Below, piece by piece: positions 43,189 to 62,438 of a DNA stretch of 64,000 nucleotides (position 1 is the first letter of the stretch; each line of letters starts with the position of its first letter). The DNA comes from Gemmatimonadota bacterium (GTDB lineage Bacteria; Gemmatimonadota; Gemmatimonadetes; Gemmatimonadales; GWC2-71-9). The position numbers and the translations under genes are program-made. Below the pieces are notes generated by a model that worked only from the letters and a program-made list of their open reading frames with translations, did no database searches and was not told where the DNA came from. The stretch spans positions 1 to 64,000 of the forward strand of contig SHZT01000004.1 in NCBI GenBank assembly GCA_009692185.1, in the 5' to 3' direction.

Positions 43189-44586
43189 CTATTGGACGTA
43201 GCGCAGGACGTCGAACAGGTAATGGACGCCGAACCCCAGGCTCTCGATACTCACGCGCTCGTCGTTGCCGTGCACACCCTGCTGCTCGATGGCTTTTTCC
43301 GTCTTGAACGGGTCGAACCCGTACGTGATGATGCCCAGCCCGCGGTACACTGGCCGGTCCGTCGCTCCCGTAAGCATGGGCGTAGTGACCAGCGCATCCG
43401 GGTCCCGCTCACGGGCCGCCCGCTCGATCGCACGGAACAGGTCGGTGTCAATCGGGTTCTCCAGCGGCGTCTTGGGCGCCAGCAGGGGCGACCAATGCAC
43501 CGCGGTATCGCCCACGATTCGCTGGAGCGTGGCAAGGAGCTCGGCAGGATCGGTGTTCGGCAGGAGGCGAATGTCGATCTCCGCGGTGGCCTCCGCCGGG
43601 ATGACGTTGGTCTTGTTGGATGCGTTGAGGACCGTGAGCGAGATCGTGTTGCGCAGGATCGCGTTCCAGTACACGTCGGACAGGATCCAGGCGCGCGCGG
43701 CGGAGTCGGCCACGGCCGACTGCACGTCTGCCAGCCACGCGCGCTTTTGCCCCGTGTACGTGCGGGAAATGTCCCGGAAATACTTTTGCACCCCGGGGGT
43801 CGCGTGGAGAGGCGTTTCGTAGCGCGCGATGCGGTCGAGCGCGGCGATGAGTCGCGGCACCGGGTTCTGGCGGGTGGGCCGCGAGCCATGCGACGGCGTT
43901 CCCTTGACTGTGACCTTCTGCCAGAAGGTCCGCTTCTCGGCGATGCCGACGCCGTAGTACCCGAGCATCCCGTTCTCCACCAGGTTCCCGCCGCCCTCGG
44001 TCATCAGGAACTCGACATCCTGGAGCAGGTCCGCGTGGCGGTTCACGAACGTCGCGACGCCGGTCGAGCCCAGCTCCTCGTCGGCGTTGCCGATGAACAC
44101 GATGTCCCGCGTGAGCGGCACGCCGCTCCGTTTGAGCGCCAGCAGGGCCATGAGCTGGACGATGCCCTCGCCCTTCATGTCGAGCGCGCCTCGGCCCCAG
44201 ACGTACCCGTCCTTCACCAGCCCGGCGAAGGGCTCGACGCTCCAGTACTGCGGCGTCACCGGGACGACGTCCAGGTGATTCACCAGTGCGATCGCACGCT
44301 TGGCGCCGGTGCCCTTGAACCGCGCGTACAGGTTCGCCCGGTTGGCCCCCAACTCTGCCGTATCCAGGATCTGGGCGGGGATTCCCTCACGCTCGAGAAC
44401 GGCCTTCAGGAACTTCGCGGCGGCGAGCTCGTTCCCCGGCGGGTTGGTGGTGTTGACCTTGAGGTAGTCGGAGAGGAGCCGGACGGTTTCATCACGTACG
44501 GCATTCCAGTCAACAGGCTTTTGCTGAGCGAAGGCGCTTCCGGCCGCGAGGATCGTCGCGAAGGCGACGGCGATGACAATCCGCAA
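43189..44586 (-). CDS. Secreted M20-family zinc peptidase
   Basis: 465 residues from TTG 44586; signal peptide RIVIAVAFATILAAGSAFAQ. M20 motifs: LVNHLDVVPV (His/Asp), GRGALDMKGEG (bridging Asp), NADEELGSTG (catalytic and ligand Glu pair), TEGGG, and the C-terminal HGNDERVS histidine. A dimerisation insert lies between. It is a carboxypeptidase/aminoacylase-like dizinc hydrolase exported to the periplasm. Its TAG stop lies just before the VOC homology. Confidence 0.9.
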   Translation of the reverse strand: MRIVIAVAFATILAAGSAFAQQKPVDWNAVRDETVRLLSDYLKVNTTNPPGNELAAAKFLKAVLEREGIPAQILDTAELGANRANLYARFKGTGAKRAIALVNHLDVVPVTPQYWSVEPFAGLVKDGYVWGRGALDMKGEGIVQLMALLALKRSGVPLTRDIVFIGNADEELGSTGVATFVNRHADLLQDVEFLMTEGGGNLVENGMLGYYGVGIAEKRTFWQKVTVKGTPSHGSRPTRQNPVPRLIAALDRIARYETPLHATPGVQKYFRDISRTYTGQKRAWLADVQSAVADSAARAWILSDVYWNAILRNTISLTVLNASNKTNVIPAEATAEIDIRLLPNTDPAELLATLQRIVGDTAVHWSPLLAPKTPLENPIDTDLFRAIERAARERDPDALVTTPMLTGATDRPVYRGLGIITYGFDPFKTEKAIEQQGVHGNDERVSIESLGFGVHYLFDVLRYVQ

Positions 44587-44592
44587 TGTGAC

Positions 44593-44988
44593 CTACTTCC
44601 TCAGGTACGCATCGGTCTTGTTGAGCCAATCCTGCCGGGGCGGGCTGAACACGTCCACATCGAGTGTGTCTTCCACGGCGTGCGCCTCGTGCCAGACGTT
44701 GGACGGGATGTGCAGCACTTCGCCCGCGCTCACGGTAATCACGTTCTTCCCGTCGGGGCCCAGGAAAAACTTGAGGGCTCCCTCGAGGATGTAGGTCAGC
44801 TGTTCGTTCTCATGCTGATGCTTCGGGACGATGCATCCCTTCTTGATGTACACGTGGGCCAGCATCATGCGCTCGCCCGTGACGAGCCGGCGGGAAAGCT
44901 GGTCCGACACTTTTTCCTTGGGCATGTCGTTCCAGCGGTAGAACGTGCAACCGGCGAGATCAGACACCAATCCTCCTTGTTTCGTCAT
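44593..44988 (-). CDS. Small cupin-domain protein
   Basis: 131 residues. Single cupin_2 barrel: motif 1 PKHQHENEQLTYILEG (metal His/Glu) and motif 2 VLHIPSNVWHEAHAV. Cytosolic, no signal. It overlaps the greA stop (ATGA), so it is translated from the greA message. Function unknown. Confidence 0.85.
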   Translation of the reverse strand: MTKQGGLVSDLAGCTFYRWNDMPKEKVSDQLSRRLVTGERMMLAHVYIKKGCIVPKHQHENEQLTYILEGALKFFLGPDGKNVITVSAGEVLHIPSNVWHEAHAVEDTLDVDVFSPPRQDWLNKTDAYLRK

Positions 44989-45461
44989 TCATCGATTTGT
45001 TCATGAAACGTCCGGAGTTCGACGATCTTGAGCTTCCGGGGGCCTGCGGGTAGTTGCACCGTAACCGTGTCGCCTTTTTTCCGGTCCAGCAGCGCCCGCC
45101 CAATCGGCGAGGCCACCGAGATCTGGCCGCCTTCGAAATCCATCGCGTCGGAGATCACCAGGTCGTACGTCTCTTTTTCCTTGGTGGCCTGGTCCACCAC
45201 TGCCACCCGCGAGCCGAGCCCCACGCATCCCCTGGGGATCTTGGTCAGGTCGATCGAGGAAAGCTTGGAGAGCCGGTTGCGGAGGTGGGACAGCCGCGCC
45301 TGCACGAATACCTGCCGTTCCCGGGCGGCGTGATAGTCGCCGTTCTCCTTCAGGTCGCCCAGCTGGACCGCCGTCTTGAGCGTTGCCGGCAGGGTCACGT
45401 TCAACTCGTGGTTGAGCGCCTCGACCTCCGCTTGGAGCTTTTGTTTGATCGCTTCAATCAT
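44985..45461 (-). CDS. greA: Transcription elongation factor GreA/GreB
   Basis: 158 residues from ATG 45461; a longer in-frame start at 45542 would overlap the terminator hairpin and is unlikely. N-terminal antiparallel coiled coil with the tip motif LGDLKENGDYHAARERQ, which carries the acidic residues that enter the RNA polymerase channel. The C-terminal FKBP-like domain has ISVASPIGRALLDRKKGDTV. It rescues backtracked polymerase by stimulating transcript cleavage. Confidence 0.92.
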   Translation of the reverse strand: MIEAIKQKLQAEVEALNHELNVTLPATLKTAVQLGDLKENGDYHAARERQVFVQARLSHLRNRLSKLSSIDLTKIPRGCVGLGSRVAVVDQATKEKETYDLVISDAMDFEGGQISVASPIGRALLDRKKGDTVTVQLPAGPRKLKIVELRTFHEQIDE

Positions 45462-45545
45462 GCCCGGCTCCGGAAATTGCGGGGGTGAAACCAGAGCCCG
45501 CCGCGCGATTGGCTGCGCGGCGGGCGATGTCGGAACATACAAAAC

Positions 45546-45575
45546 AACCCCCTCTCCCGTTAGGGAGAGGGGGTT
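45546..45575 (-). terminator. Intrinsic terminator after degP
   Basis: Perfect 13-bp stem (45546-45558 with 45563-45575) and a 4-base loop. Read leftwards it is followed by GTTTTGT. It lies 27 bases past the degP stop and before greA. The CT-rich stem also resembles a widespread REP-like hairpin. Confidence 0.85.
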
Positions 45576-45601
45576 GGGGGTGAGGCGGGGGTGAGGGTTG
45601 G

Positions 45602-47185
<1,584 letters not shown>

Positions 47186-47209
47186 GGTTTTCTGCTCCAG
47201 TATGAGCGC

Positions 47210-49159
47210 CTAGTTCTTTGAATCGTCGACGATCTCGTAGTCCGCGTCAACGACGTCCTTCTTGTCCGCTTCAGTCTTGCCGCCGGCCGCGCCGGTCGTT
47301 CCCGCATCGGCGCCGGGTGCTGCTCCTTCGGCCGGTGCGCCGGCCGCGTCTGCGCCGGGAGCGGCCTTGTACACCGAAGCCCCGGCCGCCGAATACGCCT
47401 GCGTCAACTCCTCCAGCGCCTTCTCGATTTCAGCGGTCGCGCCGGACCGGAGCCCCTTCTTGCCTTCGTCGATGGCCGCGTTCAGGCGGTCGCGGAGGCT
47501 CTGCTCGACCCGGTCCGCCCAGTCCTTGGAGTTCTTTTCGACGTCGTAGATCATAGTGTCGAGGCGGTTCCGTCGCTCGATTTCTTCACGGCGCTTCTTG
47601 TCGTCCTGCGCATGCTCTTCGGCCGACTTGACCATTTTCTGGATGTCCGCCTCGGTCATGCCGCTCGACGCCTCGATCCGGATCTTCTGTTCCTTGTTCG
47701 TCGCCTTGTCCTTGGCCGATACGTGCAGGATGCCGTTGGCGTCGATGTCGAACGTGACCTCGACCTGCGGCATGCCGCGCGGCGCGGGCGGCAGGCCAGT
47801 CAGCTGGAACCGGCCGATTGTGCGGTTGTCCTGCGCCAGGTCCCGCTCGCCCTGCAGGACGTGGATCTCGACCGTCGTCTGGCTGTCCTCGGCGGTGGAG
47901 AACACTTCCGTCCGCTTGGTCGGGATCGTCGTGTTCCGCGGAATGAGGACCGTGGTGACCCCGCCGAGCGTCTCGATACCCAGTGACAACGGCGTCACGT
48001 CGAGCAGGAGGACGTCCTTCACGTCGCCGGAGAGCACGCCGCCCTGGATCGCGGCTCCGATGGCCACGACTTCGTCCGGGTTCACGCCCTTGTGGGGTTC
48101 CTTCCCGAAGAAGGCCTTCACGATTTCCTGGACCTTGGGCATGCGCGTCTGGCCGCCCACCAGGATCACTTCGTCAATTGACTTGGGGTCGAGCCCGGCG
48201 TCCTTGAGGGCCTGCTGCATGGGCGGAATGGTCCGCTGCACCAGGTCATCCACCAGCTGCTCCAGCTTGGAGCGCGACAGCGAGTAGTTCAGGTGCTTGG
48301 GGCCCGCCTGGTCCGCAGTGATGAACGGCAGGTTGATGTCCGTTTGCATGACGCTGGACAATTCCATTTTGGCCTTTTCTGCCCCCTCCTTCAGGCGCTG
48401 GAGGGCCATGGCGTCCTTGGACAGGTCGATGCCCTGGTCCTTCTTGAACTCGGTCACCAGCCAGTCGATGACGCGCTGGTCGAAGTCGTCACCGCCCAGG
48501 TGCGTGTCGCCGTTCGTGCTCTTTACCTCGAACACGCCTTCGGCCAGCTCCAGGACTGATATGTCGTACGTGCCGCCCCCCAGGTCGAACACGGCGACCT
48601 TCTCTTCCTTCTTCTTGTCGAGACCGTAGGCCAGCGCTGCCGCCGTCGGCTCGTTGATGATGCGCAGCACGTCGAGCCCGGCGATCCGGCCGGCGTCCTT
48701 CGTGGCCTGCCGCTGGGCGTCGTTGAAATACGCGGGGACCGTGATGACGGCCTTCTCGACCTTGTGGCCGAGGTAGTCTTCCGCCGTCTGCTTCATCTTC
48801 TGGAGGATCATCGCGGAGATTTCGGGTGGCGTGTACGACTTGCCGGAGATATCAACGGCCACCAGTTCATTCGGCCCGCTTTGGACCTTGTACGGAACCC
48901 GCTTGCTCTCCTCGGGCACCTCGGCGATGCGGCGGCCCATGAAGCGCTTGATGGAGAAGACGGTGTTCTTGGGGTTGGTGACGGCCTGGCGCTTGGCCAC
49001 CTGCCCGACCAGCCGCTCCCCGTCCTTGGTGAATGCCACAACCGAAGGCGTAGTCCGGCCACCTTCCGAGTTGGGAATCACGATGGGGTCGCCCCCCTCC
49101 ATGATCGCCACAACGGAGTTGGTCGTCCCGAGGTCGATACCGATGACTTTCTGCCCCAT
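47210..49159 (-). CDS. dnaK: Chaperone protein DnaK (Hsp70)
   Basis: 649 residues. Starts [20 protein letters not shown]; ATPase signatures [15 protein letters not shown] and [14 protein letters not shown]; substrate-binding domain and lid follow, ending in an Ala/Gly linker and the [12 protein letters not shown] tail common to DnaK. No grpE, dnaJ or hrcA is in the window and no CIRCE element is seen upstream. Confidence 0.98.
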
Positions 49160-49236
49160 GCCTTCGCTCCTGACAAAAGGAAAGATGCGTGTTCGTGCTT
49201 GATGGTCGCTAAAGCAAACGTCGTACCACGTTATGG

Positions 49237-49260
49237 TGCCACTTTGGCAGGTAACTGGCA
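49237..49260. promoter_or_regulatory. TGGCA repeats upstream of dnaK
   Basis: TGCCA-CTT-TGGCA (49237-49249) is a perfect dyad, followed by another TGGCA at 49256-49260, in the 170-base gap between dnaK and the rhomboid gene. Not a CIRCE element. It may be a binding site for an unidentified regulator. Confidence 0.25.
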
Positions 49261-49296
49261 GAGCGTAGTGTTGTCAGGCAGTAGCAGGCTAAGTAA

Positions 49297-49325
49297 TTGA
49301 CCTACATGCATTTCTGAGCTAGTAT
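49297..49325 (+). promoter_or_regulatory. Sigma70-type promoter for the rhomboid-microcompartment gene run
   Basis: TTGACC (49297-49302), a 17-base spacer and TAGTAT (49320-49325). A start 6-8 bases downstream falls on the GTG start codon at 49331, suggesting a leaderless message. No Shine-Dalgarno sequence is present. Confidence 0.6.
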
Positions 49326-49330
49326 AGGCC

Positions 49331-50113
49331 GTGTTTCCGTACCGCGACGACAACCCGACTCTCCAGACCCCGTTTGTCACAGTCGGGGTGATCATACTGA
49401 CGTCGGTCGTCTGGCTCCTGGTTCAGGGGGGCGGCAGCGACCCCGCCCTCGGCCGGTCGGTATGTGAGCTTGGCGCGATCCCGGGCGAGCTGCTCGGCCG
49501 AGTAGCGGCCGGCACGACCGTACCGATTGGTCCGCAACTCTCCTGCGTGCTGACTGACACGCCGCACTGGTACACGGTCGTGTCATCCGTATTCCTTCAT
49601 GGCGGCTGGCTGCATCTCATCGGCAACATGTGGTTCCTGTGGATCTTCGGGAACAACGTGGAAGATTCCATGGGACACGTCCGATTTGTGGTGTTCTACC
49701 TCGTCTGCGGAGTGCTGGCGGCCCTCGCCCAGATCTATGCCAGCCCGGCGTCCGCGATCCCAATGGTCGGCGCATCGGGCGCCATCTCCGGAATCATGGG
49801 GGCGTACGTGGTTCTCTACCCGCGGGTCCGGGTGCACCTGATCGTCTGGTTAGGATTCTGGGTGACGACCGTCGCGGTGCCGGCGTACTTGATGCTCCTC
49901 TACTGGGCGTTGGTGCAGCTTCTCGGGAGCCTGCCGGCGCTGGGTCAGAGCACCGCGCAGGGCGGCGTGGCATTCCTGGCGCACCTCGGCGGGTTCGTAG
50001 TTGGCGCCGTGTTGATCCGCGCGTTCACCCGCACGGAACTGGTTGACGCTCACCGCCGGCATATTCTCGCCGTCAGCTCGGGCGCTCCATGGCAGCGGAA
50101 TCCTTGGGAGTGA
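49331..50113 (+). CDS. Rhomboid-family intramembrane serine protease
   Basis: 260 residues from GTG 49331. Six or so membrane helices. Rhomboid features: SVFLHGGWLHLIGNMWFLWIFG (conserved HxxxN region), catalytic serine in VGASGAISGIMGAY, and catalytic histidine in FLAHLGGFVVG. It cleaves membrane proteins within the bilayer. Located 4 bases before the first microcompartment vertex gene, with which it is probably co-transcribed; a functional link is not obvious. Confidence 0.9.
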   Translation: MFPYRDDNPTLQTPFVTVGVIILTSVVWLLVQGGGSDPALGRSVCELGAIPGELLGRVAAGTTVPIGPQLSCVLTDTPHWYTVVSSVFLHGGWLHLIGNMWFLWIFGNNVEDSMGHVRFVVFYLVCGVLAALAQIYASPASAIPMVGASGAISGIMGAYVVLYPRVRVHLIVWLGFWVTTVAVPAYLMLLYWALVQLLGSLPALGQSTAQGGVAFLAHLGGFVVGAVLIRAFTRTELVDAHRRHILAVSSGAPWQRNPWE

Positions 50114-50117
50114 CCTC

Positions 50118-50417
50118 GTGTACCTGGCCCGCATAGTCGGCCGAGTGGTCGCGACGGTGAAGCAGGACACGCTCAAGGCGCAGCCCTTGCAGTGGATCCA
50201 GCCGATCGATGCCGCGGGCAAGGATCACGGAAAGCCCATCGTGGCCGTGGATCCCATCGGCCTCGGGCCCGACGAGGTGTGCTACTACATCACCGCACGA
50301 GAAGCGACGCTCTCCCTATCGGAGACATTCGTGGCGGTGGATGCCAGCATCGTCGGCAAGGTAGATCGGGTGGATTTGGCAAACGGGGAAAAGGGAAAAG
50401 GGAAAGGGGAAAAGTAG
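50118..50417 (+). CDS. Bacterial microcompartment vertex protein (EutN/CcmL, BMC-P), copy 1
   Basis: 99 residues from GTG 50118 with GGGAG upstream. Pfam EutN_CcmL pattern: VYLARIVGRVVATVKQDTLK, QPLQWIQPIDAAGK, VAVDPIGLGPDEVCYYITAR and the C-terminal VDASIVGKVDRVDL. These pentamers cap the vertices of microcompartment shells. The last residues (NGEKGKGKGEK) come from a simple purine repeat and are not part of the fold. It is followed after 3 bases by a second EutN gene. Confidence 0.9.
   Translation: MYLARIVGRVVATVKQDTLKAQPLQWIQPIDAAGKDHGKPIVAVDPIGLGPDEVCYYITAREATLSLSETFVAVDASIVGKVDRVDLANGEKGKGKGEK
50385..50414. repeat. Purine simple repeat (GGGAAAA)n at the end of vertex gene 1
   Basis: A 30-base all-purine tract made of about four GGGAAAA-like units with slight variation, directly before the TAG stop. 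It encodes an EKGKGKGEK tail. Length change would alter the stop and the spacing to the next gene. Confidence 0.8.
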
Positions 50418-50420
50418 GAC

Positions 50421-50696
50421 TTGTACCTGGCGCGGGTGGTTGGCAGCGTGGTCTCCACGCACAAGAATGAGCGGCTGGTCGGCAAGAAGCTCTTGCTGGT
50501 GCAGCGGCTCGATCTTGACGACAAGCCGGACGGCTCGGTCGAGGTGATTGCGCTGGACGTCGTGGACGCAGGCGAGGGAGACAAGGTCCTGGTCGTGCAG
50601 GAAGGCAGTTCGGCCCGCACGATTTTCAACGACCAGAAGATCCCGGTTCAGGCGGTGATTGTGGGAGTTGTGGATCGGGTGGACATAGAGAGATAA
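50421..50696 (+). CDS. Bacterial microcompartment vertex protein (EutN/CcmL, BMC-P), copy 2
   Basis: 91 residues from TTG 50421. The whole length fits one EutN/CcmL domain: MYLARVVGSVVSTHKNERLV, KKLLLVQRLDLDDKPDG, VEVIALDVVDAGEGDKVLVV, and the end AVIVGVVDRVDIER. It is clearly divergent from copy 1, as in shells that use several BMC-P paralogues. Hexamer/trimer shell proteins (BMC-H/T) are not in the window. Confidence 0.92.
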   Translation: MYLARVVGSVVSTHKNERLVGKKLLLVQRLDLDDKPDGSVEVIALDVVDAGEGDKVLVVQEGSSARTIFNDQKIPVQAVIVGVVDRVDIER

Positions 50697-50768
50697 GGCG
50701 ATGGTGGGAAGAGCGATGGTGGAGGAGGCGATGGTGGGAAGGGCGACGGTGGAAGAGGCGATGAGGCG
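50697..50768. repeat. Minisatellite in the leader of the DeoC gene
   Basis: Two 30-bp copies (50697-50726 and 50727-50756) differ at 3 positions and are each built of two GCGATGGTGG half-units; a partial copy (GGCGATGAGGCGATGG) runs into the DeoC start codon. The tract fills the gap between vertex gene 2 and deoC and contains several GGAG/GAGG and ATG triplets. Confidence 0.85.
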
Positions 50769-51779
50769 ATGGATATGGACGAGAGAGAGCTGAACGAACT
50801 CGCCCGAGCGGTCGCGGCTCGACTCGCCGAGAGTCGGAGACGTGGTCGTCGCGAGCCCGAAGCGCGCGCCGTTGTTCCTATCCGCCCAACCGCCCAACCG
50901 CCTGTCCGCCAAGGCGGCCCGTGGATGAACGCGGATCCGGCGTGGAGGATGCCGGTGGGGGGGCGCACGGCGCACGGCGCACCGGGCTTGGTCGTCGCGG
51001 AGACGACCGTAGTCCCCGTTCCCGTTGTCGTTCAAGCTGCCTCAGTTCGCGTCGCAGACTTCATCGATCATACGGTCTTGAAGGCCGAAACGACACGTGG
51101 CGAGATAGACAAGCTGTGCGCCGAGGCGGTGGAGCACCGGTTTGCCGCGGTGTGCGTGAATGGCGTGTGGACGGCGCGTTGCGCCAGGCTGGTGAAGGGA
51201 AGCGGCGTGAAGGTCGCGACCGTCGTCGGGTTCCCGCTGGGTGCGATGACCAGTGCGGCAAAGGCGTTCGAGACGAAGCAGGCGGTCGCTGACGGGGCCG
51301 ATGAGATCGACATGGTCGCCGCCCTGGGTCACATCCTGGACGAAGACTGGGACCACGTAGAGGATGATATTCGCGCGGTCGTGGAGGCCGCGGCCGGCCG
51401 TACGGTCAAGGTGATCCTTGAAACCGCCGCGCTTCAGCCGCTCACGGTGGTGAAGGCCGCCGCGATCGCGATGGAAGCCGGCGCCCATTTCGTGAAGACG
51501 TCAACCGGCTTTCATCCGTCGGGAGGAGCGACGGCCGAGGCCGTGGCGCTGATGCGGCTGGTGGTCGGCGACGCGCTGGGGGTGAAGGCGTCGGGCGGCG
51601 TGCGGGACTGCGCCACCGCGCTCAAGATGATCGCGGCCGGTGCCAGCCGGCTGGGAACGTCGAGCGGGGTGAAGCTGGTGGATTGCCTTGGCGCGGGACC
51701 GATGCCGCTGGCAGACTTGCTCGCGTCGCCCGACAAGCACGAGGCGAGCTGCAAATCGGGGAACTGCGAGACGTACTGA
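50769..51779 (+). CDS. deoC: Deoxyribose-phosphate aldolase with encapsulation-peptide-like N-terminus
   Basis: 336 residues; ordinary DeoC is ~220-250. Residues ~4-25 (DERELNELARAVAARLAESR) form an amphipathic helix like known microcompartment encapsulation peptides. A low-complexity linker (to ~90) is followed by the class I aldolase barrel: DHTVLKAET, VATVVGFPLGAM, Schiff-base lysine in HFVKTSTGFHPSGGAT, and VKASGGVRDCATAL. It splits 2-deoxyribose-5-phosphate into glyceraldehyde-3-phosphate and acetaldehyde. With two vertex proteins upstream it is probably a shell cargo. The tail CKSGNC contains paired cysteines. Confidence 0.92.
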   Translation: MDMDERELNELARAVAARLAESRRRGRREPEARAVVPIRPTAQPPVRQGGPWMNADPAWRMPVGGRTAHGAPGLVVAETTVVPVPVVVQAASVRVADFIDHTVLKAETTRGEIDKLCAEAVEHRFAAVCVNGVWTARCARLVKGSGVKVATVVGFPLGAMTSAAKAFETKQAVADGADEIDMVAALGHILDEDWDHVEDDIRAVVEAAAGRTVKVILETAALQPLTVVKAAAIAMEAGAHFVKTSTGFHPSGGATAEAVALMRLVVGDALGVKASGGVRDCATALKMIAAGASRLGTSSGVKLVDCLGAGPMPLADLLASPDKHEASCKSGNCETY

Positions 51780-51794
51780 CTGACTCGCCTTCCT

Positions 51795-52193
51795 TTTGGT
51801 CAGCTTGCCGAGGAAAATGTCGGCCAGGATTGCCGGCGTGAACCGGATGGGCGCGGACAACCCCGGGAGGTTGTACGCCGGCACGACGGCGCCGAGGACC
51901 GTGGGTATGTGGAGGACGTTGCCCCCGATGGCAGTGATGGCCGAGTCGGTCATTGGCGCATCGCTGGTGCCAAAGTCCACGGTCTTGTCCGAGAATTGCC
52001 GGATCCCGCCGCCCGAACCGATGGACTGGTAGTTCAGCTCGGCTCCGAGGGCCTTCTGGTTGTAGGTGATGATCCAGTTCTGGTAGATGAGGTTCGGGAA
52101 CGTCGCGCCGGCCCCGTTCAGGCGAACCTGGCCAGCCGCGTGAGGGGCTGCAGCCGCCAGCGCGGCCAGGGCGATCAGGCAAACTCTCTTCAT
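51795..52193 (-). pseudogene. pstS: Phosphate-binding protein PstS, N-terminal third only
   Basis: From ATG 52193: signal peptide (RVCLIALAALAAAAPHAAGQ), then GAGATFPNLIYQNW, NYQSIGSGGGIRQF, VDFGTSDAPMTDSA and AILADIFLGKLTK, all typical PstS. Homology stops at ~51795 where the sequence runs into the deoC 3' end; the frame continues antisense through deoC to a stop at 51501, with no family resemblance. The C-terminal two thirds, including the second lobe, are missing. A rearrangement breakpoint lies within about 15 bases of the deoC stop. Confidence 0.9.
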
Positions 52194-52220
52194 GAGTAGC
52201 GGCCTCTCGTGTGCGGTCGT

Positions 52221-53258
52221 TTAGAAGGTGAACTGCATCTGGAACAAGGCCTGCGATCGGACCGCCTCGAGTGCCGGCGTGGTCACACCGCCCTCGTACA
52301 TCAGGTGGTCCAGGTCCAGCAGGAGGCGGAGGTTGGGAGTGATCTGGCAGGAAGCGCCCGCGATGATCCTGGTCTGGCGGTCCGCGGCGACGCCGGTGTT
52401 GGGGTCGATCACATCAACCCGTCCGATGAAAGTCACCTTGGACTTGGGCATGCGGTACACCGCGAACCCGCTCAGTATCCGGCCCGCGCGGGTGCGCAGG
52501 AGCGGCGTCGTGATGCTATCCCGGGTGAACGCGATCTCGGCCGCGACGGTGGCCCGGCGGCTTCGATAGGAGACCGCGGCCAGGGCTCGCTGACGGGTCC
52601 CACCGCTAGTGGGTTTTCCCAAGTGCCCGAACGCGCTGAGACGGAGCCCGCCCGTCCGGCTGCTATCGTCGGTCTTGGCGACACGCGCTGAGACCCGCAG
52701 CTGGGCGTCCTTCCGGCGGTCCCCGGGTGCGCGGTTATAGTTCTCGCCGTTCAGGACCGTGAATTGCGCGTTGACCCGGTCCGGGCCCCATTTCCCGTCA
52801 ATTCCCAGGCCGAAATCGGAGGACGACAGGTAGCTGAGCGGGGTGGCTTGGTCGCCGCGATCGAGCACGGTCGTGCCCTGCATCCGGTAATCCCACAGCG
52901 TCTCTTCGAAGTCGTTCCAGGCCGTCTGCATCTGGCCGAACTTGAACGTCAGCTTGCTGTTCTTTGGCGTGTAGGCTGCGAAGGCGTACTTGAGCCGGTA
53001 GGCCAGCGATCCGTCCGCGACTCGGTAGATGTCGCCCGTGACTCGAGTGGTGAGCGCGTCAAACCGGCCGTTGAAATTCAGGTAGGCGCGGGTGACGTCG
53101 AAGTTGTTGCCCCGATTGGCGGTGTCGGCGAGGAGGTAGGAATACTGCGCGTAGACGACGCCGCCGCCCGTGAGGGACGGCGCCGTCTGGGCCAGGCCAG
53201 GTTGAGCCACGATCGCGGCGGCGAGAAATGCCGCGCCCGTGAGCTTGGTAAGTGACAT
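52221..53258 (-). CDS. Outer-membrane porin, phosphate-selective type likely
   Basis: 345 residues from ATG 53258 with signal peptide (TKLTGAAFLAAAIVAQPGLAQ). Alternating beta strands throughout, ending in QMQFTF with the C-terminal phenylalanine required for barrel insertion. KYAFAAYTPKNSKLTFKFGQMQTAW resembles porins of the OprO/OprP group. Position between truncated pstS and phoRB supports phosphate starvation control, and a Pho-box-like repeat lies upstream. Confidence 0.7.
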   Translation of the reverse strand: MSLTKLTGAAFLAAAIVAQPGLAQTAPSLTGGGVVYAQYSYLLADTANRGNNFDVTRAYLNFNGRFDALTTRVTGDIYRVADGSLAYRLKYAFAAYTPKNSKLTFKFGQMQTAWNDFEETLWDYRMQGTTVLDRGDQATPLSYLSSSDFGLGIDGKWGPDRVNAQFTVLNGENYNRAPGDRRKDAQLRVSARVAKTDDSSRTGGLRLSAFGHLGKPTSGGTRQRALAAVSYRSRRATVAAEIAFTRDSITTPLLRTRAGRILSGFAVYRMPKSKVTFIGRVDVIDPNTGVAADRQTRIIAGASCQITPNLRLLLDLDHLMYEGGVTTPALEAVRSQALFQMQFTF

Positions 53259-53313
53259 GTGTGAGCGTGTTCCTATATAGAAAGGGTTGAACTCGAACAG
53301 GGGAAAGGTCAGG

Positions 53314-53334
53314 GAGCCCGGTTTCGACGGGCTC
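53314..53334 (-). terminator. Hairpin between phoR and the porin gene
   Basis: GAGCCCG (53314-53320) pairs with CGGGCTC (53328-53334), 7-base loop. It follows the phoR stop and precedes the porin. There is only a short pyrimidine stretch after it, so it is a moderate terminator or attenuator candidate. Confidence 0.45.
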
Positions 53335-53340
53335 ACGGAA

Positions 53341-53358
53341 GTGCAACAATAGTGTAAC
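53341..53358 (-). promoter_or_regulatory. Candidate Pho box upstream of the porin
   Basis: On the minus strand GTTACAC-TATT-GTTGCAC: two 7-base direct repeats with 11-base periodicity and an AT-rich 4-base spacer, the architecture of PhoB sites (CTGTCAT-like units). It lies ~85 bases before the porin ATG, beyond a TATATA at 53274-53279 that may be its -10. Confidence 0.45.
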
Positions 53359-53377
53359 GGGGGCTGAACGCGGCGAG

Positions 53378-55087
53378 CTAGGCTATCGGGGATGGGAAGA
53401 AGAGTCGAACGGTCGTCCCCTCGCCGAGCGCGCTCTCGACCGACACCCGCCCGTCGTGCGCTTCGACCAGGTGTTTCACGATAGCGAGGCCCAGCCCTGT
53501 TCCGCCCTCGTCGCGGGAGCGGCCCGGATCCACGCGGTAGAACCGCTCGAAAACGCGCGGCAGGTGGTCCTTCGGAATGCCGGCCCCGGTATCGCGGACG
53601 ACTACTTCCATGCCGTCGGGCAGGCGCTGTGCGGAGAGGGTGACCCGGCCGCCCGGCGGCGTGTGGCGGATCGAGTTGTCGAAGAGGTTAGTCAGGATCT
53701 GCCGCACGGCGTCCGGTTCGGCGTGCAGGGACACGCCGGGGCCGGCCGAAACGTCGAGGCCGATGTTTCGCTCGGCGGCGCGCGGAGCGAGCGGGGCCCA
53801 GGCCTCACGCGCCGCCTGCGCGACGTCCACCGTGCCCGCGTTCGCCTGCCACCGGTCGGACTCGATGCGCGCGAGGTCCAGGAGGTCGTCCACCAATCGC
53901 TGCATGCGGCGGCTGTTCGCCAGGATGACGTCGAGGAACTTCCGGCGCGTCGCGGGATCGGTTTCGTCCGCCAGCAGTGTCTCGGCGTACCCCGCGATGC
54001 TGGTGAGCGGGGTTTTCAGTTCGTGCGACACGTTGGCCACGAAGTCGCGCCGCACGGTTTCCAGCCGCTTAAGCTCCGAAACATCGTGCAGGACGATCAC
54101 CGCGCCGCCCTTGGGTAGCGGCCGGGCGGTGAACAGAATCACGCGCTCGCCGATCGTGGTTTCGCGGTCAACGACCGCTTCGCCGCGGAGCGCCCGCTCG
54201 ACGATATCCAGGACGTCCCGCTGGTGAAACAGTTCCCGGGCATTCGGGATCCGCTCGTCCGGCCCGAACGCCAGCAGGCGCCTGGTTGCGTCGTTAGAGC
54301 TCACCACGTTGCCATCGCCGTCCACGGCCATGACGCCTTCCACCATGGACTGAATCAGCGTCTCCGTTTCCTCGCGGCCGCGCCGCAGGGCCTCCATTCG
54401 GGCGCCCAGGTCGTCGTCCATCGCGCGGAGGGAGCGCACGAGCTGGCGGATTTCGGGGGCCGTCGAGTGCGGGAAATCCGGACGCTCGCCGGCGGCCAGG
54501 GCGCGCGCCGCGCGCCCCAGTTCAGCCAAAGGGCGTCCGAACGCCCGCCCGCCCACGCCGGCCAGGACCGACCCGAACAGCAACGCCACGAGCGAGGCGA
54601 CCAGCACCGCCTGTTGTGCCACGCTCACCTGGGCGTCCACCTGTTCGAGCGGGGCCGACACGCGGACAACGCCGGGCCAGGCGGGGATCGCGATCTTGAG
54701 TTCCGGCCGGTTGGTGGACGTGGACAGCCTTCGGTCTGTTCCGGTTCTTCCCGCCAGGGCGGTTTCGACTTCGGGCCGGCCCCGGTGGTTCTCGAGGAGC
54801 TTGAGGCTGGCGTCGTCGAAGTCCGAATCACCGAGGACAACGCCGTCGCGGGCGATGAACGTGACGCGGCGGCCGAGCACGGCACCGAAGCGATGGGCAA
54901 GCGGGTTGAGCGTGGTTGAGCCACGCGGGATGGCCGACGCGATCAGGCTGGCTTCGCGTTCTAGTTCAGCGGCGAGGGATGCTTCGAGGTCTTTGCGCTG
55001 CCAACGGTCGGTCGCCACCACCATCGCGGTGACCGACACGAGCAGGATGGCCACCGCCCCAAGAAAGAGGCGGGTGGCGAACGTCAC
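53378..55087 (-). CDS. phoR: Phosphate-regulon sensor histidine kinase PhoR
   Basis: 569 residues from GTG 55087, overlapping the phoB stop (GTGA). Two membrane helices (~5-25 and ~160-182) enclose a periplasmic domain. HAMP-like linker, PAS (~240-340), HisKA with H355 in NVSHELKTPLTSIAGYAETL (a PhoR-like box), HATPase (LFDNSIRHTPPG, DTGAGIP, GGTGLGLAI). The coupling with phoB and neighbouring phosphate genes supports the name. Confidence 0.88.
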   Translation of the reverse strand: MTFATRLFLGAVAILLVSVTAMVVATDRWQRKDLEASLAAELEREASLIASAIPRGSTTLNPLAHRFGAVLGRRVTFIARDGVVLGDSDFDDASLKLLENHRGRPEVETALAGRTGTDRRLSTSTNRPELKIAIPAWPGVVRVSAPLEQVDAQVSVAQQAVLVASLVALLFGSVLAGVGGRAFGRPLAELGRAARALAAGERPDFPHSTAPEIRQLVRSLRAMDDDLGARMEALRRGREETETLIQSMVEGVMAVDGDGNVVSSNDATRRLLAFGPDERIPNARELFHQRDVLDIVERALRGEAVVDRETTIGERVILFTARPLPKGGAVIVLHDVSELKRLETVRRDFVANVSHELKTPLTSIAGYAETLLADETDPATRRKFLDVILANSRRMQRLVDDLLDLARIESDRWQANAGTVDVAQAAREAWAPLAPRAAERNIGLDVSAGPGVSLHAEPDAVRQILTNLFDNSIRHTPPGGRVTLSAQRLPDGMEVVVRDTGAGIPKDHLPRVFERFYRVDPGRSRDEGGTGLGLAIVKHLVEAHDGRVSVESALGEGTTVRLFFPSPIA

Positions 55088-55785
55088 CGGGCGGCCTTCA
55101 ATCGGTACCCGAATCCGCGCACGGTTTCCACGAGGTCGCCCGCGTGGCCCAGTTTCGCGCGCAGGCGCTGGACGTGCATGTCTACCGTGCGGGTCTGGAT
55201 GCTGGGGTGCGCCTCCCACACCGTTTCGAGGAGCTGGGCTCGGGATTGCACGCGGCCGCGGCGTTCGGCTAGCGTCAGGAGCAGCTTGTATTCGGTGGCG
55301 GTCAGGTCGAGGGGCTTCCCGCCGACGCTCACTTGGTGCGCCGCGCGGTCAACGGAGATCGGGCCGGCGACCAGGAGCGACCCGGGCGAGACGGCCGGAC
55401 CGGCGAGTCGCCGGAGTACCGCGCCCACCCGGAGGACCAGTTCTTTCGGGGAGAATGGCTTGACGACGTAGTCATCGGCGCCGAGCGCGAGGCCGCGCAC
55501 GCGGTCTACCTCGTCCTTGCGGGCGGTGAGGAGAATGACACCGATGTCTCTGGTTTCCGGCTTTCGGCGGATTTCCTGAAGGATGTCGTAGCCGGATGCG
55601 CCGGGGAGCATGAGGTCGAGTATGACCAGGTCAGGGGCGGCCTCGCCGGCGGCCTTGAGCGCCTCGGCGCCGTTGCTGGCCGTGGCGACGCGATAGCCCT
55701 CTTTCGCGAGATGATATGCGACGAGTGCGGTAATGTCGGGCTCGTCGTCAACAACCAGGATACGGTGGGTCAATGGTCCGGCCAA
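55084..55785 (-). CDS. phoB: Phosphate-regulon response regulator PhoB (OmpR family)
   Basis: 233 residues from TTG 55785. Receiver domain: acidic DDE (13-15), phospho-acceptor D57 (VILDLMLPG), T88, K109 (YVVKPF). The C-terminal winged-helix trans_reg_C domain contains LDLTATEYKLLLTLAERRG, RTVDMHVQRLRAKLG and ETVRGFGYRL. It activates Pho genes when phosphorylated by PhoR; likely targets here are the porin and the truncated pstS. Confidence 0.9.
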   Translation of the reverse strand: MAGPLTHRILVVDDEPDITALVAYHLAKEGYRVATASNGAEALKAAGEAAPDLVILDLMLPGASGYDILQEIRRKPETRDIGVILLTARKDEVDRVRGLALGADDYVVKPFSPKELVLRVGAVLRRLAGPAVSPGSLLVAGPISVDRAAHQVSVGGKPLDLTATEYKLLLTLAERRGRVQSRAQLLETVWEAHPSIQTRTVDMHVQRLRAKLGHAGDLVETVRGFGYRLKAAR

Positions 55786-55893
55786 TTGGGGACTTCGGGC
55801 GAATATAACGGTCGGTCAAGTGGCGACCATCACACTCCCTCAGCCGGCCGGCAATTGCGCCGGAGAAGGCGTTCTTTCAGATTGCGCTTCCTT

Positions 55894-58800
55894 ATGTATA
55901 TGTCGCTGACCCGCCGGTTCGCGGTCGGAATCGCGCTGGTCCTGGGCGCGCCGTGCGCCGCCGCCGCGCAGGATTCCCTCCACGTGGTCGTTGTGTCCAC
56001 GACCGATATCCACGGTCGGGTCACCTCCTGGGACTACGTCCAGGACCGCGAGGCTCCCTGGGGCCTCGATCGCGCCGCGACCGTTATCGACTCGTTACGC
56101 AAGGCGTATCCCGGCCAGGTCGTCGTGGTGGATGCAGGCGACCTGATCCAGGGCGATCCCTTCGCCGCGTATTTCGCGTCCGTCCGTCCCGCCGATCCGA
56201 ATCCGGTCGTGGACGCGCTGAACGCGGTAGGCTACGACGCGTGGACCCCCGGAAACCACGAGTTCAACTTCGGGCTCGAGGCGCTGGCCCGCGCCACGGG
56301 CAACGCCGCTTTCCCGGTGGTGTCGGGCAACGTCTTCGCCCTTCCGCGCGACACGCTGGCGTACCAGTCCTCGGCGGTGGTCGTCCGGCGCGGCGGCATC
56401 CGTGTTGGGATCACCGGTTTCACCACGCCCGGCGTGATGCGCTGGGATGCGCGCAACGTGTCGGGCCGGGTGCTGGTGCGTCCGATCCTTCCGCAGGCGG
56501 AGCGCATGCTGCGGTATCTGGACTCCCGGGTGGATCTCAAGCTGGTGCTCATCCATAGCGGCATGGACGGGCCTTCGTCCTACGACGCCACCGGCGTCGG
56601 CGACGAGAACGTCGCGGCCCGGCTCGCGACTCTGCAGGTGAAGCCGGACCTTGTAGTCGTCGGTCATTCGCACCGCCGGATGCGGGACTCCGTGATCGCC
56701 GGCGTCCATTTTGTGCAGCCTGACCCATGGGCGCAGAGTCTCTCGGTGGCGCACGTGTGGTTCACGCCGCGCGCCCGGCCGAGCGCGGACGGCTCGCGGT
56801 ATCGTGTGAGCCGCATCGAAGCAGACCTGGTTCCGCTGGCGGGCGTAAAGCGGGACCCGCGTGTTGTCGCCCGGTTCGCGCTCGCCAGGACGGCGGTGCA
56901 AAGCTGGGTGTCGCAGCCGCTGGCCACGATCGAAGGCGACTGGAGCGCGCGGAACGCGCGGGCCGAAGACACACCCGTCATTGACTTCATCAACGAAGTG
57001 CAGCGCCGCCAGACGGGGGCGCAGCTCTCGACCACGGCCGTGGCGGACACCCGCACCGGGTTCGGCACCGGGGTCGTCCGCCTGCGGGACGTGGCCGGTG
57101 TGTACCCCTACGAGAACACGCTCAAGGCCATCCGGATTCCGGGTGTCGCCCTCAAGGCGTACCTGGAGCAGTCGGCCGCGTATTTCCGCACGTGGAATCC
57201 CGGCCAGCCGATCATCAACGACAGCATTCCGGGCTACAACTACGACATCGTGAGCGGGGTGAGCTACACGGTAGACGTGTCCCGGCCGGTGGGGTCGCGC
57301 ATCCTCCAGCTCACCTACCAGGGACGGTTGGTGCAGCCGTCAGACACGTTCACGATGGCGATCAACAACTACCGGCAAGGCGGAGGCGGCGGTTTCCGCA
57401 TGCTTGCCGGCCTGCCGGTCGTGTACGATCACGACGAGAACGTGCGGGATGTCATCGTGGAGGCGCTTCGGAAGATCGACACCCTGCGGGCGAAGGACTA
57501 CACCGACCGGTCGTGGCAGATCACGCCGCCGGCGGCGGCCGCCGCGGTGCGGGGGCAGTTCGGGGGCCCGGTGGCGGCCGCGCGGGACTCGCTGCTCCTC
57601 CGCGTATTCCATATCAACGACCTGCACGGGGCCCTCGAGCCCCGCGTCACATCGTGGTCCGGCGGCAAGCGCGTCGGGGGGGTGGCGGCTATCAAGGGCC
57701 TCATGGATTCCCTGACAAAGGAATGTGCCTGCGCCACCATACGGCTCGACGGCGGCGACGAGATGCAGGGGAGTCCCGCCTCGAACTGGGTGTACGGGAA
57801 GTCCGTCATTGAAGCGATGAATGCCATGGGGATCAGCGCCGCCGCCGTGGGCAACCACGAGTACGACTGGGGTGTAGACACCCTGCAGGCCCGCATTCAG
57901 GATGCTCACTACCCCTTTCTTTCGGCCAACACGATCGAGACGCGCACCGGGAAACCGCCTGCCTGGGTCATTCCCTGGACGGTGGTGGAAGTGGGTGGCA
58001 AGAAGGTCGGGCTGATCGGGATCACGACGATCACGACGCCGACGTCGGCCCGCCCGTCCATCGTCGCGCCGTACACGTTCGAGAAGGCGGCCCTCGCGAT
58101 TCACCGGGCGCTTCCCGACGTACGGTCGAACCGGCCGGATTTCGTCTTCGTGCTGGCCCATGAAGGCGGCTTCTGCGACTCGACCTGCCACGGCGAGATC
58201 TTCGACGTCGCCCGGACGCTCGATTCAGGGTCGGTGGACCTGATCGCCGCCGGGCACACGCACGTGCCGTTCAACACGACGGTCAAGGGAATCCCGATCG
58301 TGGATGCCGGTGCCTTCGGCGGCGGCGTCGTGGTCGTGGACTTCTGGCGCCGCGCCAACGGCGTACGGCAAACCGTGGCGCAGGTCCATACCGTGTGGAC
58401 CGATAGCATCCGGCCCGACCCGGCCCTCACCGCCCTGGTCGAGCGGTACAAGCAGCTGACCAACCGGGTGGCGGCGCGGACGGTGGCCGACTTCAAGTTT
58501 CCCCTCGAGAAACGCGAGGCGGAATACCCCCTGGGCCACCTCATTGCCGATGCCCAGCGCGCCACTGGTCGCACCGATGTGGCGATCATGAACAACGGCG
58601 GGATACGCACGCGGATTCCCGCGGGGCCCGTGACGTTCGGCCATCTGTTCGAGGTGCATCCGTTCGGGAATATCCTGGTCAAGCTCACGGTCCGGGGAGA
58701 CAGCCTCCTGCGGGCTTTCGAGACGGTTGTGGCGGGAGACCAGCCCGACGCCAACGTGTCGGGTGTCGAGATCTGGTACGACCCGTCCAAGCCCAACTGG

Positions 58801-59034: not shown

Positions 59035-59273
59035 CCGGCGCCGTTCGTGTGTTCGTGAACGAGCGGCCGGTGAGCGTGGCGACGGGGGCGACGGTGCGTG
59101 ACGCCGTGGCGGTGTTCGATGAAACACTGGCAGGCAAGCTCGCGGCCGGCGCCGCCTACGTCACGGACGGCGTGGGTCGTCCCGCGGAACCAGGCGCCGC
59201 CGTCACGCCGGGAGCGATCATCCGCGTCGTTGTCTCCGCCCGACGGTCCGAAGAACCAGAAACCGCCGAGTGA
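59031..59273 (+). CDS. Small beta-grasp (ThiS/MoaD-like) protein, function unknown
   Basis: 80 residues, overlapping the nucleotidase stop (ATGA) and the add start (GTGA), so firmly within the operon. VRVFVNERPVSVATGATVRDA and PGAAVTPGAIIRVVVSARR follow the strand-helix-strand order of ubiquitin-like ThiS/MoaD folds. The C-terminal Gly-Gly needed for thiocarboxylation is absent; it ends in EEPETAE. A binding or regulatory partner of the purine enzymes is conceivable but unproven. Confidence 0.55.
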   Translation: MTGAVRVFVNERPVSVATGATVRDAVAVFDETLAGKLAAGAAYVTDGVGRPAEPGAAVTPGAIIRVVVSARRSEEPETAE

Positions 59274-60295
59274 CCCTCACCCGCGAACTCCTTCGCCGCC
59301 TCCCCAAGGCGGAGCTCCACGTACACCTGGACGGCTGCCTCCGGCCCGAGACCATGATCGAGCTGGCGCGGGAGCAGAACGTGCGCCTGCCGGCGGACGA
59401 CGCGGCTGCGCTCCGGCGCTACATGCTGGTGGACAACGTCAGGAACCTCGAGGAATACCTCGAGCGCTACTTCGTGACGGTGGCGGTCATGCAGACGTCG
59501 CGTGCGCTCGAGCGCATTGCCTACGAGTTCGTGGTGGACGTGGCGGCGGAGAACGTGCGGTACGTCGAAGTGCGATACTGTCCCGCCCTGCACACGCCGG
59601 CATTGTCGCTCACCCAGGCCGTGGAAGCGCCGCTGGAGGGCATCCGGAGGGCGTCGAAGGAAACAGGCGTGCGGGTCGGGCTGATCATTTGCGGGCTGCG
59701 CACGTTCGCGCCATCGGTGTCCCAGGAACTGGCGCGGGTTGCCGCCGACTATCGCGACGCCGGTGTGGTGGCGTTCGACCTGGCCGGGGCGGAGCAGGGG
59801 CACCCAGCGAAGGATCACGCCAAGGCCTTCGCATACGCTGCCGGGCACGGACTCCACTGCACCTGTCACGCGGGCGAAGCGGACGGGATCGATTCTATTC
59901 GCCAGGCGCTCCACGTGTGCGGTGCGCAGCGGATCGGTCATGCCACCCGCTTGTTCGAAGACCCGGCCATGCTGGAGGAGGTGCGGGAGCGTCGCATTCC
60001 GCTCGAGATGTGCCTCACATCGAATCTCCACAGCCACGCCGTGACGGATCTCGCCAAACACCCCGCGCGGCGTTACTTCGATGCCGGGTGTGTCGTGACC
60101 CTCAATACCGACGGGCGGCTCATGGACGGCGTCACGCTCACGGATGAGTACTGGGCAGCTCACGAGAAACTCGGCTTCACCCGCGCGGAACTTGACCGGG
60201 TGATCGTGAACACGTTCGAGAGCGCATTCCTGCCGGACGACGACAAGGCGCGACTGGTTGCCCAGGTCAAACACGAACTCGGGGAGATTCGATGA
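59270..60295 (+). CDS. add: Adenosine deaminase
   Basis: 341 residues, GTG start in a GTGA overlap. Zinc and catalytic motifs: PKAELHVHLDGCLRPE (HxH), CTCHAGEADG (His and Glu), RIGHATRL, and VVTLNTDGRLMDG (the metal Asp). The NTD-x-RLM variant rather than NTDDP occurs in some bacterial adenosine/adenine deaminases. It deaminates (deoxy)adenosine to (deoxy)inosine. It is coupled by ATGA to nupC. Confidence 0.92.
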   Translation: MTLTRELLRRLPKAELHVHLDGCLRPETMIELAREQNVRLPADDAAALRRYMLVDNVRNLEEYLERYFVTVAVMQTSRALERIAYEFVVDVAAENVRYVEVRYCPALHTPALSLTQAVEAPLEGIRRASKETGVRVGLIICGLRTFAPSVSQELARVAADYRDAGVVAFDLAGAEQGHPAKDHAKAFAYAAGHGLHCTCHAGEADGIDSIRQALHVCGAQRIGHATRLFEDPAMLEEVRERRIPLEMCLTSNLHSHAVTDLAKHPARRYFDAGCVVTLNTDGRLMDGVTLTDEYWAAHEKLGFTRAELDRVIVNTFESAFLPDDDKARLVAQVKHELGEIR

Positions 60296-61635: not shown

Positions 61636-62438
61636 CCATCGGCGCGGCGGCAAAGGCGGTCGGCCAATGGCTGGCCGACCTGAAGCCGCGCGCCGCCGTC
61701 GTCCTTGGGTCCGGCCTCGCCGCGCTCGCTGAGAAGGTCGACCAACGCCGGGCGCTGCCGTACCGGGACATTCCGGGGTTTCCGATTCCAACCGTCGCAG
61801 GCCACGGCGGCGAACTGGTGGCGGGGCACCTCGAGGGCGTGCCGGTCCTCCTCCAGAGTGGCCGCTTTCATCTATATGAAGGCCACGCCCCGGACATCGC
61901 GGCCCTGCCGATTCGCGTCTTCGCCGACCTCGGTATCGAAACAATCGTCCTTACCAACGCCGCCGGCGGTTTGAAGCCCACCATGCGCCCGCCCGCACTC
62001 ATGCTGATCGCGGACCACCTGAACTTCATGTTTCGGAACCCGTTGCTGGGTCCGGTGGCCCCGGGGGAACAACGCTTCCCGGACATGTCTGCGTCCTACG
62101 ACCCCGGCCTCCGCCAGTTGGCGCGCGATGTTGCGTTGGCGGGCGGCATTCCGCTCGACGAGGGCGCATACGCTGGCCTGCTGGGACCATCCTACGAGAC
62201 ACCGGCCGAAATCCGCATGCTCCAACGACTTGGTGCAGATGCCGTGGGCATGTCCACGGTTCCCGAGACCATCGCTGCCCGCGCCCGCGGGCTCCGGGTC
62301 TTGGGTATTTCGACTATCACCAACCTGGCCGCCGGCATATCGCCCACCCCCCTGTCACATCACGAAGTGGTCGCCGCCGGCAAGGCCGTAGGGGAACGAC
62401 TCGAACGTCTTGTACGGGGCGTACTTCGAGGCCTGTAG
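61632..62438 (+). CDS. punA: Purine nucleoside phosphorylase (PNP-I/trimeric type)
   Basis: 268 residues, typical of trimeric PNPs. AAVVLGSGLAAL (phosphate-binding), VAGHGGELVAGHLEGVPV, RFHLYEGH, VLTNAAGGLKPTM, GPSYETPAEIRMLQRLGADAVGMSTVPE and the base-binding ISTITNLAAGISPTPLSHHE. It converts (deoxy)inosine or guanosine plus phosphate to base and (deoxy)ribose-1-phosphate. Last intact gene of the purine operon; a sigma-factor remnant follows in the same frame right after its stop. Confidence 0.95.
   Translation: MTIGAAAKAVGQWLADLKPRAAVVLGSGLAALAEKVDQRRALPYRDIPGFPIPTVAGHGGELVAGHLEGVPVLLQSGRFHLYEGHAPDIAALPIRVFADLGIETIVLTNAAGGLKPTMRPPALMLIADHLNFMFRNPLLGPVAPGEQRFPDMSASYDPGLRQLARDVALAGGIPLDEGAYAGLLGPSYETPAEIRMLQRLGADAVGMSTVPETIAARARGLRVLGISTITNLAAGISPTPLSHHEVVAAGKAVGERLERLVRGVLRGL

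What the first reader, a model, noticed from the sequence alone, without database searches (positions are those of the whole stretch)
50118..51779. Minimal microcompartment module: two vertex proteins plus DeoC with a cargo-type N-terminus, but no shell hexamers
Seen: two adjacent EutN/CcmL genes and a DeoC whose first ~25 residues form an amphipathic helix plus linker absent from normal DeoC. Known: encapsulation peptides target enzymes into microcompartments, and DeoC releases acetaldehyde, a volatile aldehyde of the kind shells retain. Inference: a deoxyribose-phosphate (DNA/nucleoside) degrading compartment fed by the nearby nupC-add-punA genes. BMC-H/T genes and an aldehyde dehydrogenase are missing here, so the locus is split, truncated or of a new kind.
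Basis: partly seen in the sequence, partly recalled or inferred. Interest (0 to 1): 0.85.

Follow-up and report, generated by a model that had tools for sequence, protein, structure and literature searches.

The report
Dispersed DNA-sugar microcompartment in Gemmatimonadota
The two vertex-protein genes and the tagged deoxyribose-phosphate aldolase seen here are one of three scattered gene sets that together appear to build a protein-shelled compartment for breaking down the sugar of DNA; such compartments are known, but this dispersed, differently equipped version gives a testable function to a group whose function was unassigned.

Summary
In detail: two EutN/CcmL genes directly precede a DeoC that carries an amphipathic N-terminal helix and a disordered linker. 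The module is not truncated or shell-less. The same genome (99.94% complete) carries two BMC-H genes followed by an acetylating acetaldehyde dehydrogenase with a C-terminal helix and a PduL with an N-terminal helix (contig C1). A third vertex gene lies in a deoB-cdd operon (contig C9). This three-locus layout recurs across Gemmatimonadota: of 395 genomes, 34 have vertex genes and 19 of those have this type. The P1-P2 pair precedes deoC in 18 of 18 assessable genomes, and the third vertex gene lies beside cdd in 19 of 19. Eleven other genomes carry a consolidated SPU-like locus whose three vertex proteins are orthologous. BMC-free relatives have a different DeoC without the helix. Best reading: a dispersed DNA-deoxyribose metabolosome with 2 BMC-H, 3 BMC-P, no BMC-T, DeoC, a type I AldDH and PduL. 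DNA-sugar BMCs (SPU, HO) are published, and Gemmatimonadetes are listed among 'FRAG' BMCs of unassigned function, so this is a new variant of a known kind. Encapsulation and activity are untested.

The parts
50118..50417 (+). BMC-P1 (EutN/CcmL vertex protein), start GTG 50118
   Evidence: PF03319 66.7 bits; orthologous clade with SPU and f8 P1
50421..50696 (+). BMC-P2 (EutN/CcmL vertex protein), start TTG 50421
   Evidence: PF03319 91 bits; clade
50769..51779 (+). DeoC, deoxyribose-phosphate aldolase with N-terminal extension
   Evidence: TIGR00126 251.7 bits; profile match to solved DERA structures; D181, K243, K273 invariant
50781..50846 (+). encapsulation-peptide-like amphipathic helix, DeoC residues 5-26
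   Evidence: AlphaFold2; conserved in 16 orthologues; not seen in DeoCs of BMC-free relatives
50850..51023 (+). disordered, unconserved linker, DeoC residues 28-85
   Evidence: pLDDT below 50; alignment A1
51732..51776 (+). DeoC C-terminal tail with conserved His/Cys pair and terminal Tyr (HEASCKSGNCETY)
   Evidence: alignment A1; absent from the consolidated-type DeoCs
49331..50113 (+). rhomboid-like membrane protein gene, conserved upstream neighbour of locus A (role unknown, probably a positional neighbour)
   Evidence: present beside P1 in most three-locus genomes
59273..60295 (+). add, adenosine deaminase (likely substrate supply, not part of the module)
   Evidence: PF00962 329.9 bits
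60292..61635 (+). nupC-type nucleoside transporter (likely substrate supply)
   Evidence: PF07662 253.7 bits
61632..62438 (+). punA, purine nucleoside phosphorylase (likely substrate supply)
   Evidence: PF01048 179.7 bits
55900..59034 (+). two-domain 5'-nucleotidase (possible source of nucleosides)
   Evidence: two stretches of PF02872, plus PF00149

Best explanation
The module is one of three dispersed parts of a bacterial-microcompartment metabolosome that catabolises deoxyribose from DNA or deoxynucleosides. Locus A (window): BMC-P1, BMC-P2 and DeoC. Locus B (contig C1): BMC-H1, BMC-H2 with an extra C-terminal domain, acetylating acetaldehyde dehydrogenase, PduL. Locus C (contig C9): phosphopentomutase, cytidine deaminase, BMC-P3. 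Proposed working: nucleosides are taken up, deaminated and phosphorolysed; phosphopentomutase makes deoxyribose-5-phosphate in the cytosol; this enters the shell, where helix-tagged DeoC splits it into glyceraldehyde-3-phosphate, which leaves, and acetaldehyde, which helix-tagged AldDH and PduL turn into acetyl-CoA and acetyl-phosphate while recycling CoA and containing the aldehyde. Shown: the genes, their families, the conserved tags, the conserved three-locus linkage and the orthology of the vertex triplet to SPU. Inferred: assembly of one shell, encapsulation, flux and regulation.
For: BMC-H x2, AldDH and PTAC are contiguous on C1. The AldDH's best model is TIGR02518 acetylating acetaldehyde dehydrogenase (563 bits, cut-off 620) and its best solved relative is an acetylating acetaldehyde dehydrogenase. 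The third BMC-P follows deoB-cdd. Phylum survey: 34 of 395 genomes have BMC-P. P1-P2 (or P2) lies directly upstream of deoC in 18 of 18 assessable three-locus/f8 genomes, and P3 lies beside cdd in 19 of 19, with deoB in 16. BMC-H1-H2-AldDH-PduL is complete in 14 genomes. PTAC is found only in three-locus genomes among 30 tested. The tags LxxLAxxIAxxL on DeoC and PduL and xxIVxxFLA on AldDH are conserved, and the DeoC helix-linker is predicted. G000 has a single DeoC. Relatives in the same family carry a consolidated SPU-like BMC locus with DeoC, and with RpiB where checked (G019), and P1, P2 and P3 each group with their SPU-like counterparts.
Against: No experiment. Acetate kinase is absent from G000 and from 10 of 12 three-locus genomes tested in all, so the fate of acetyl-phosphate is unclear. 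No BMC-T and no locus-linked RpiB. AldDH is just below the curated equivalog cut-off. Shuffle controls for the helix use related sequences, and the helix is weakly amphipathic in some single sequences. Shared regulation of the three loci was not tested.
Confidence: 0.85

Rival explanations
1. Plain SPU metabolosome: the window simply holds a scattered copy of the catalogued SPU type.
For: Same signature enzyme DeoC and an orthologous BMC-P triplet; SPU-like loci exist in the same family.
Against: SPU types share DeoC and RpiB; here RpiB genes are unlinked. The AldDH is of the other main branch (C-terminal tag, about 30% identical to the SPU-like one), PTAC is PduL, and there is no BMC-T.
Confidence: 0.08
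2. Decayed or relic compartment: vertex genes and DeoC remain as leftovers and no shell is made.
For: The window lacks BMC-H; the downstream pstS is a truncated remnant, so the neighbourhood has been rearranged.
Against: All shell, tag and catalytic parts are intact and conserved across 19 genomes of several families.
Confidence: 0.03
3. DeoC and vertex proteins form a shell-less condensate or scaffold, with the BMC-H proteins serving another compartment.
For: The vertex and hexamer genes are never in one operon in this type; encapsulation peptides can drive condensation (PMC12339742, title and abstract only).
Against: The genome has only one set of BMC-H and one AldDH gene beside shell genes, and the three loci co-occur; no second compartment exists to claim them.
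Confidence: 0.04

Closest known systems
SPU (sugar phosphate utilization) BMC, PMC4207490 and PMC8217296
   Same: DeoC as signature enzyme making acetaldehyde, AldDH, proposed DNA-sugar catabolism; first reported from single-cell genomes including Gemmatimonadetes, most with PduL; vertex triplet orthologous to that of SPU-like loci in this phylum
   Different: here dispersed over three loci, no linked RpiB, no BMC-T, AldDH of the C-terminal-tag branch, third vertex gene in a deoB-cdd operon
HO BMC (Haliangium ochraceum type), PMC8217296
   Same: satellite locus of two BMC-P plus an aldolase, some aldolases with an EP-like N-terminal extension, BMC-P triplet
   Different: HO has BMC-T and an AldDH nearest to SPU5/7; the locus-B gene set differs
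FRAG BMCs, PMC8217296
   Same: shell genes dispersed over several genomic places, BMC-P triplet, found in Gemmatimonadetes
   Different: FRAG types were reported without an obvious signature enzyme; here DeoC is adjacent to the vertex pair. Whether these exact genomes are catalogued FRAG members could not be checked (supplement not available)
EUT2-type AldDH branch (type I, IPR013357, C-terminal EP), PMC8217296
   Same: acetylating acetaldehyde dehydrogenase with C-terminal helix
   Different: no ethanolamine ammonia-lyase gene was seen beside it in locus B; used with DeoC

Membership tests
Bacterial microcompartment (metabolosome) | BMC-H hexamer gene(s) in the genome | tested here: met
   two PF00936 genes on C1, 103.9 and 84 bits
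Bacterial microcompartment (metabolosome) | BMC-P vertex gene(s) | tested here: met
   three PF03319 genes
Bacterial microcompartment (metabolosome) | CoA-acylating aldehyde dehydrogenase and PTAC | tested here: met
Bacterial microcompartment (metabolosome) | alcohol dehydrogenase for cofactor recycling | not tested
   no search made; none recognised in locus A, B or C
Bacterial microcompartment (metabolosome) | assembled shell with enzymes inside | not testable with these tools
   needs microscopy or purification
Encapsulation peptide | 15-20 residue amphipathic terminal helix joined by a flexible linker | tested here: met
   DeoC; PduL and AldDH by sequence only:
Encapsulation peptide | directs the enzyme into a shell | not testable with these tools
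   needs a targeting experiment
SPU BMC | DeoC-type pfam01791 aldolase in the BMC gene set | tested here: met
   adjacency
SPU BMC | RpiB pfam02502 in the BMC gene set | tested here: not met
   two RpiB genes in the genome, unlinked to shell genes
SPU BMC | AldDH of the EUT1/EUT3/SPU branch (N-terminal EP) | tested here: not met
   AldDH best fits TIGR02518 and has a C-terminal helix; no AldDH tree was built
FRAG BMC | shell genes at several distant genomic places with a BMC-P triplet | tested here: met
   loci over 100 kb apart on one contig in G028, G089, G101, G155
FRAG BMC | shell-protein composition of a named FRAG1-7 subtype | not testable with these tools
HO BMC | BMC-T in the shell gene set | tested here: not met
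   no tandem or third PF00936 domain in G000
HO BMC | satellite locus of two BMC-P plus aldolase | tested here: met
   window 50118-51779

The most novel reading that the evidence does not exclude
An uncatalogued BMC subtype that assigns DNA-deoxyribose catabolism to a FRAG-like compartment: an SPU-derived vertex triplet and DeoC combined with an EUT2-branch aldehyde dehydrogenase and PduL, a shell without BMC-T, and vertex proteins distributed between pathway operons (deoC operon; deoB-cdd operon), suggesting that the vertex paralogues have pathway-specific roles.
Probability: 0.5. Interest if true: 0.62.

Novelty: new variant of a known kind. Interest (0 to 1): 0.52.

Why it matters
The 2021 BMC catalogue lists FRAG BMCs (Gemmatimonadetes included) among types without an obvious signature enzyme and states that their function is still to be revealed. 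Here genome context gives one: deoC sits with two vertex genes and cdd (usually with deoB) with the third, in every three-locus genome where this can be judged. That makes the function directly testable by growth on deoxynucleosides. The vertex orthology also gives a case of a BMC that apparently changed its gene layout, aldehyde dehydrogenase and phosphotransacylase while keeping signature enzyme and vertices. The idea of a DNA-sugar BMC itself is not new.

Tried and rejected
Truncated locus or assembly break: rejected. The module is at 50 kb of a 216-kb contig, and in G028, G089, G101 and G155 loci B and C lie 105-121 kb apart on one contig. Shell-less module: rejected by BMC-H genes on C1. 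Ordinary cytosolic DeoC with a chance extension: disfavoured by the conserved helix, by helix-tagged AldDH and PduL in the same genomes, and by the absence of the motif in DeoCs of BMC-free relatives. Those mostly belong to a different DeoC subfamily, so they are not a like-for-like control; G087, of higher score, has at most 18-31 residues before the domain motif. RNA elements: no Rfam match in 44000-64000. Promoter/terminator scan uninformative. C-terminal domain of BMC-H2: no Pfam match; the whole-chain fold search only finds the BMC fold among the matches shown. The held library gave no paper describing this arrangement in Gemmatimonadota, but supplements and subscription papers were out of reach.

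Full report
What is there. The window is bases 1-64000 of contig C27 (215,871 bases) of a 2.63-Mb, 99.94% complete genome in 30 contigs. Its nearest named relative is a Gemmatimonadetes MAG: a DeoC search hits RBC101 at 65%, and RBC101 has the same locus. BMC-P1 (50118-50417), BMC-P2 (50421-50696) and DeoC (50769-51779) are in one direction. DeoC has about 94 residues before the aldolase domain. Prediction gives helix 5-26, a disordered linker 28-85, and a confident barrel. D181, K243 and K273, which from general knowledge correspond to the catalytic residues of DeoC, are invariant in 19 aligned sequences, and the profile matches solved deoxyribose-phosphate aldolases with E down to 1e-106.

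The missing parts are in the genome. PF00936 finds two genes on C1. They are followed by an acetylating acetaldehyde dehydrogenase and a PduL-type phosphotransacylase; the dehydrogenase's best solved relative is an acetylating acetaldehyde dehydrogenase, 449 bits. The dehydrogenase ends in DDIAKAVEAFLAERR and PduL begins with KDELEALAARIADLLSRQ, helix-like tags of the same kind as DeoC's ERELNELARAVAARLAES. A third BMC-P on C9 directly follows a phosphopentomutase-like gene and a cytidine deaminase-like gene (named by sequence reading, not by a family search; conserved). There is no third PF00936 domain, hence no BMC-T.

Conservation. Among 395 phylum genomes 34 have BMC-P. I sort them, from loci fetched and annotated, into: three-locus type, 19 genomes (some with only part of the set assembled); consolidated type DeoC-(unknown 212 aa)-BMC-H-P3-AldDH-BMC-T-P1-P2 (preceded by RpiB in G019, the only one checked), 11 genomes; an intermediate f8 group, 3 genomes; and one other (G009). 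In the three-locus and f8 groups, P1-P2 or P2 directly precedes deoC in all 18 genomes where this can be judged (G354 from a gene fragment at a contig end; G378 has P1 about 11 kb away), and P3 lies beside cdd in all 19 where P3 was found, with deoB in 16. Locus B is complete in 14 genomes and cut by contig ends in three. In G028, G089, G101 and G155 loci B and C share a contig at 105-121 kb distance, so the dispersal is real.

The targeting helix. In 16 DeoC orthologues the first 22 residues have a mean maximal hydrophobic moment of 0.58 against 0.40 (sd 0.03) in shuffles, 0 of 1000 reaching it. Single sequences range from P = 0.002 to 0.57, and the rows are related. The linker is unconserved in length and sequence. 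DeoCs of BMC-free relatives lack the LxxLAxxIAxxL motif; most are of another DeoC subfamily (about 140-160 bits against about 235-285).

Evolution. A tree of 87 vertex proteins gives three clades P1, P2, P3, each holding the three-locus, f8 and consolidated forms (P2 97/89, P3 97/91, P1 96/62; only 92 columns, so forks are soft). The three-locus system thus shares its vertex triplet and signature enzyme with the SPU-like loci. Its aldehyde dehydrogenase is only about 30% identical to the consolidated one and carries its helix at the C-terminus, not the N-terminus, which in the published scheme separates type I from type II (PMC8217296). PTAC of the PduL family was found only in three-locus genomes among 30 tested.

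Mechanism. Add, NupC, PunA and a 5'-nucleotidase in the window, plus Cdd and phosphopentomutase at locus C, would deliver deoxyribose-5-phosphate. DeoC yields glyceraldehyde-3-phosphate and acetaldehyde; AldDH and PduL yield acetyl-CoA and acetyl-phosphate. The reactions are standard knowledge of these families; their enclosure in one shell is inferred. G000 has one DeoC only, so its deoxyribose-5-phosphate flux would all pass through the tagged enzyme. Acetate kinase is absent from G000 and 9 others of 12 three-locus genomes tested; acetyl-phosphate must have another sink, not identified.

Known or new. Axen 2014 (PMC4207490) named SPU from DeoC-bearing loci, some in Gemmatimonadetes, and proposed DNA catabolism. 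[quoted passage not shown] The present system is dispersed like FRAG, has vertices and DeoC like SPU/HO, and an AldDH that fits the EUT2 branch. It fails the RpiB and AldDH criteria for SPU and the BMC-T criterion for HO. I call it a new variant of a known kind. Whether it equals a catalogued FRAG subtype could not be tested.

Noticed in passing
window 51501-52193 (-): A pstS-like gene is truncated after about 130 residues; its frame then runs antisense into the 3' end of deoC, with the break close to the deoC stop codon. Relative G103 has a full-length pstS. Deletion or rearrangement, or an assembly join.
   Followed up: partly
L012 13744-14205 (-) and orthologues: BMC-H2 carries a conserved 45-residue C-terminal helical domain (KVVELRxxARxxPxFPxKGRxxARAGRDExLxxFR) with no Pfam match; predicted as four short helices with high confidence.
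   Followed up: partly
window 51732-51776 and orthologues: DeoC of the three-locus type has a C-terminal tail with a conserved His, a Cys pair (C-x2-C or C-x4-C) and in nearly all a terminal Tyr, lacking in the consolidated type. Role of the Cys pair unknown.
   Followed up: no
L113 6560-11616 (G096): In the f8 group the BMC-H locus also has a ParA-family ATPase gene (possible compartment-positioning factor), a Pta, and a BMC-H with a different C-terminal extension.
   Followed up: no
G378 contig C266, L157/L158: P1 and P2 are separated by about 10.7 kb, as if an element had been inserted between them.
   Followed up: no
L111 8296-8934 and orthologues: A 212-residue protein with no Pfam match, about 90% conserved, lies between deoC and BMC-H in the consolidated SPU-like loci.
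   Followed up: no
L013 9608-10825 and orthologues: A DNRLRE-domain, probably secreted, protein gene follows BMC-P3 in most three-locus genomes.
   Followed up: no
G000 and relatives: Acetate kinase is missing from 10 of 12 three-locus genomes tested although PduL is present.
   Followed up: partly
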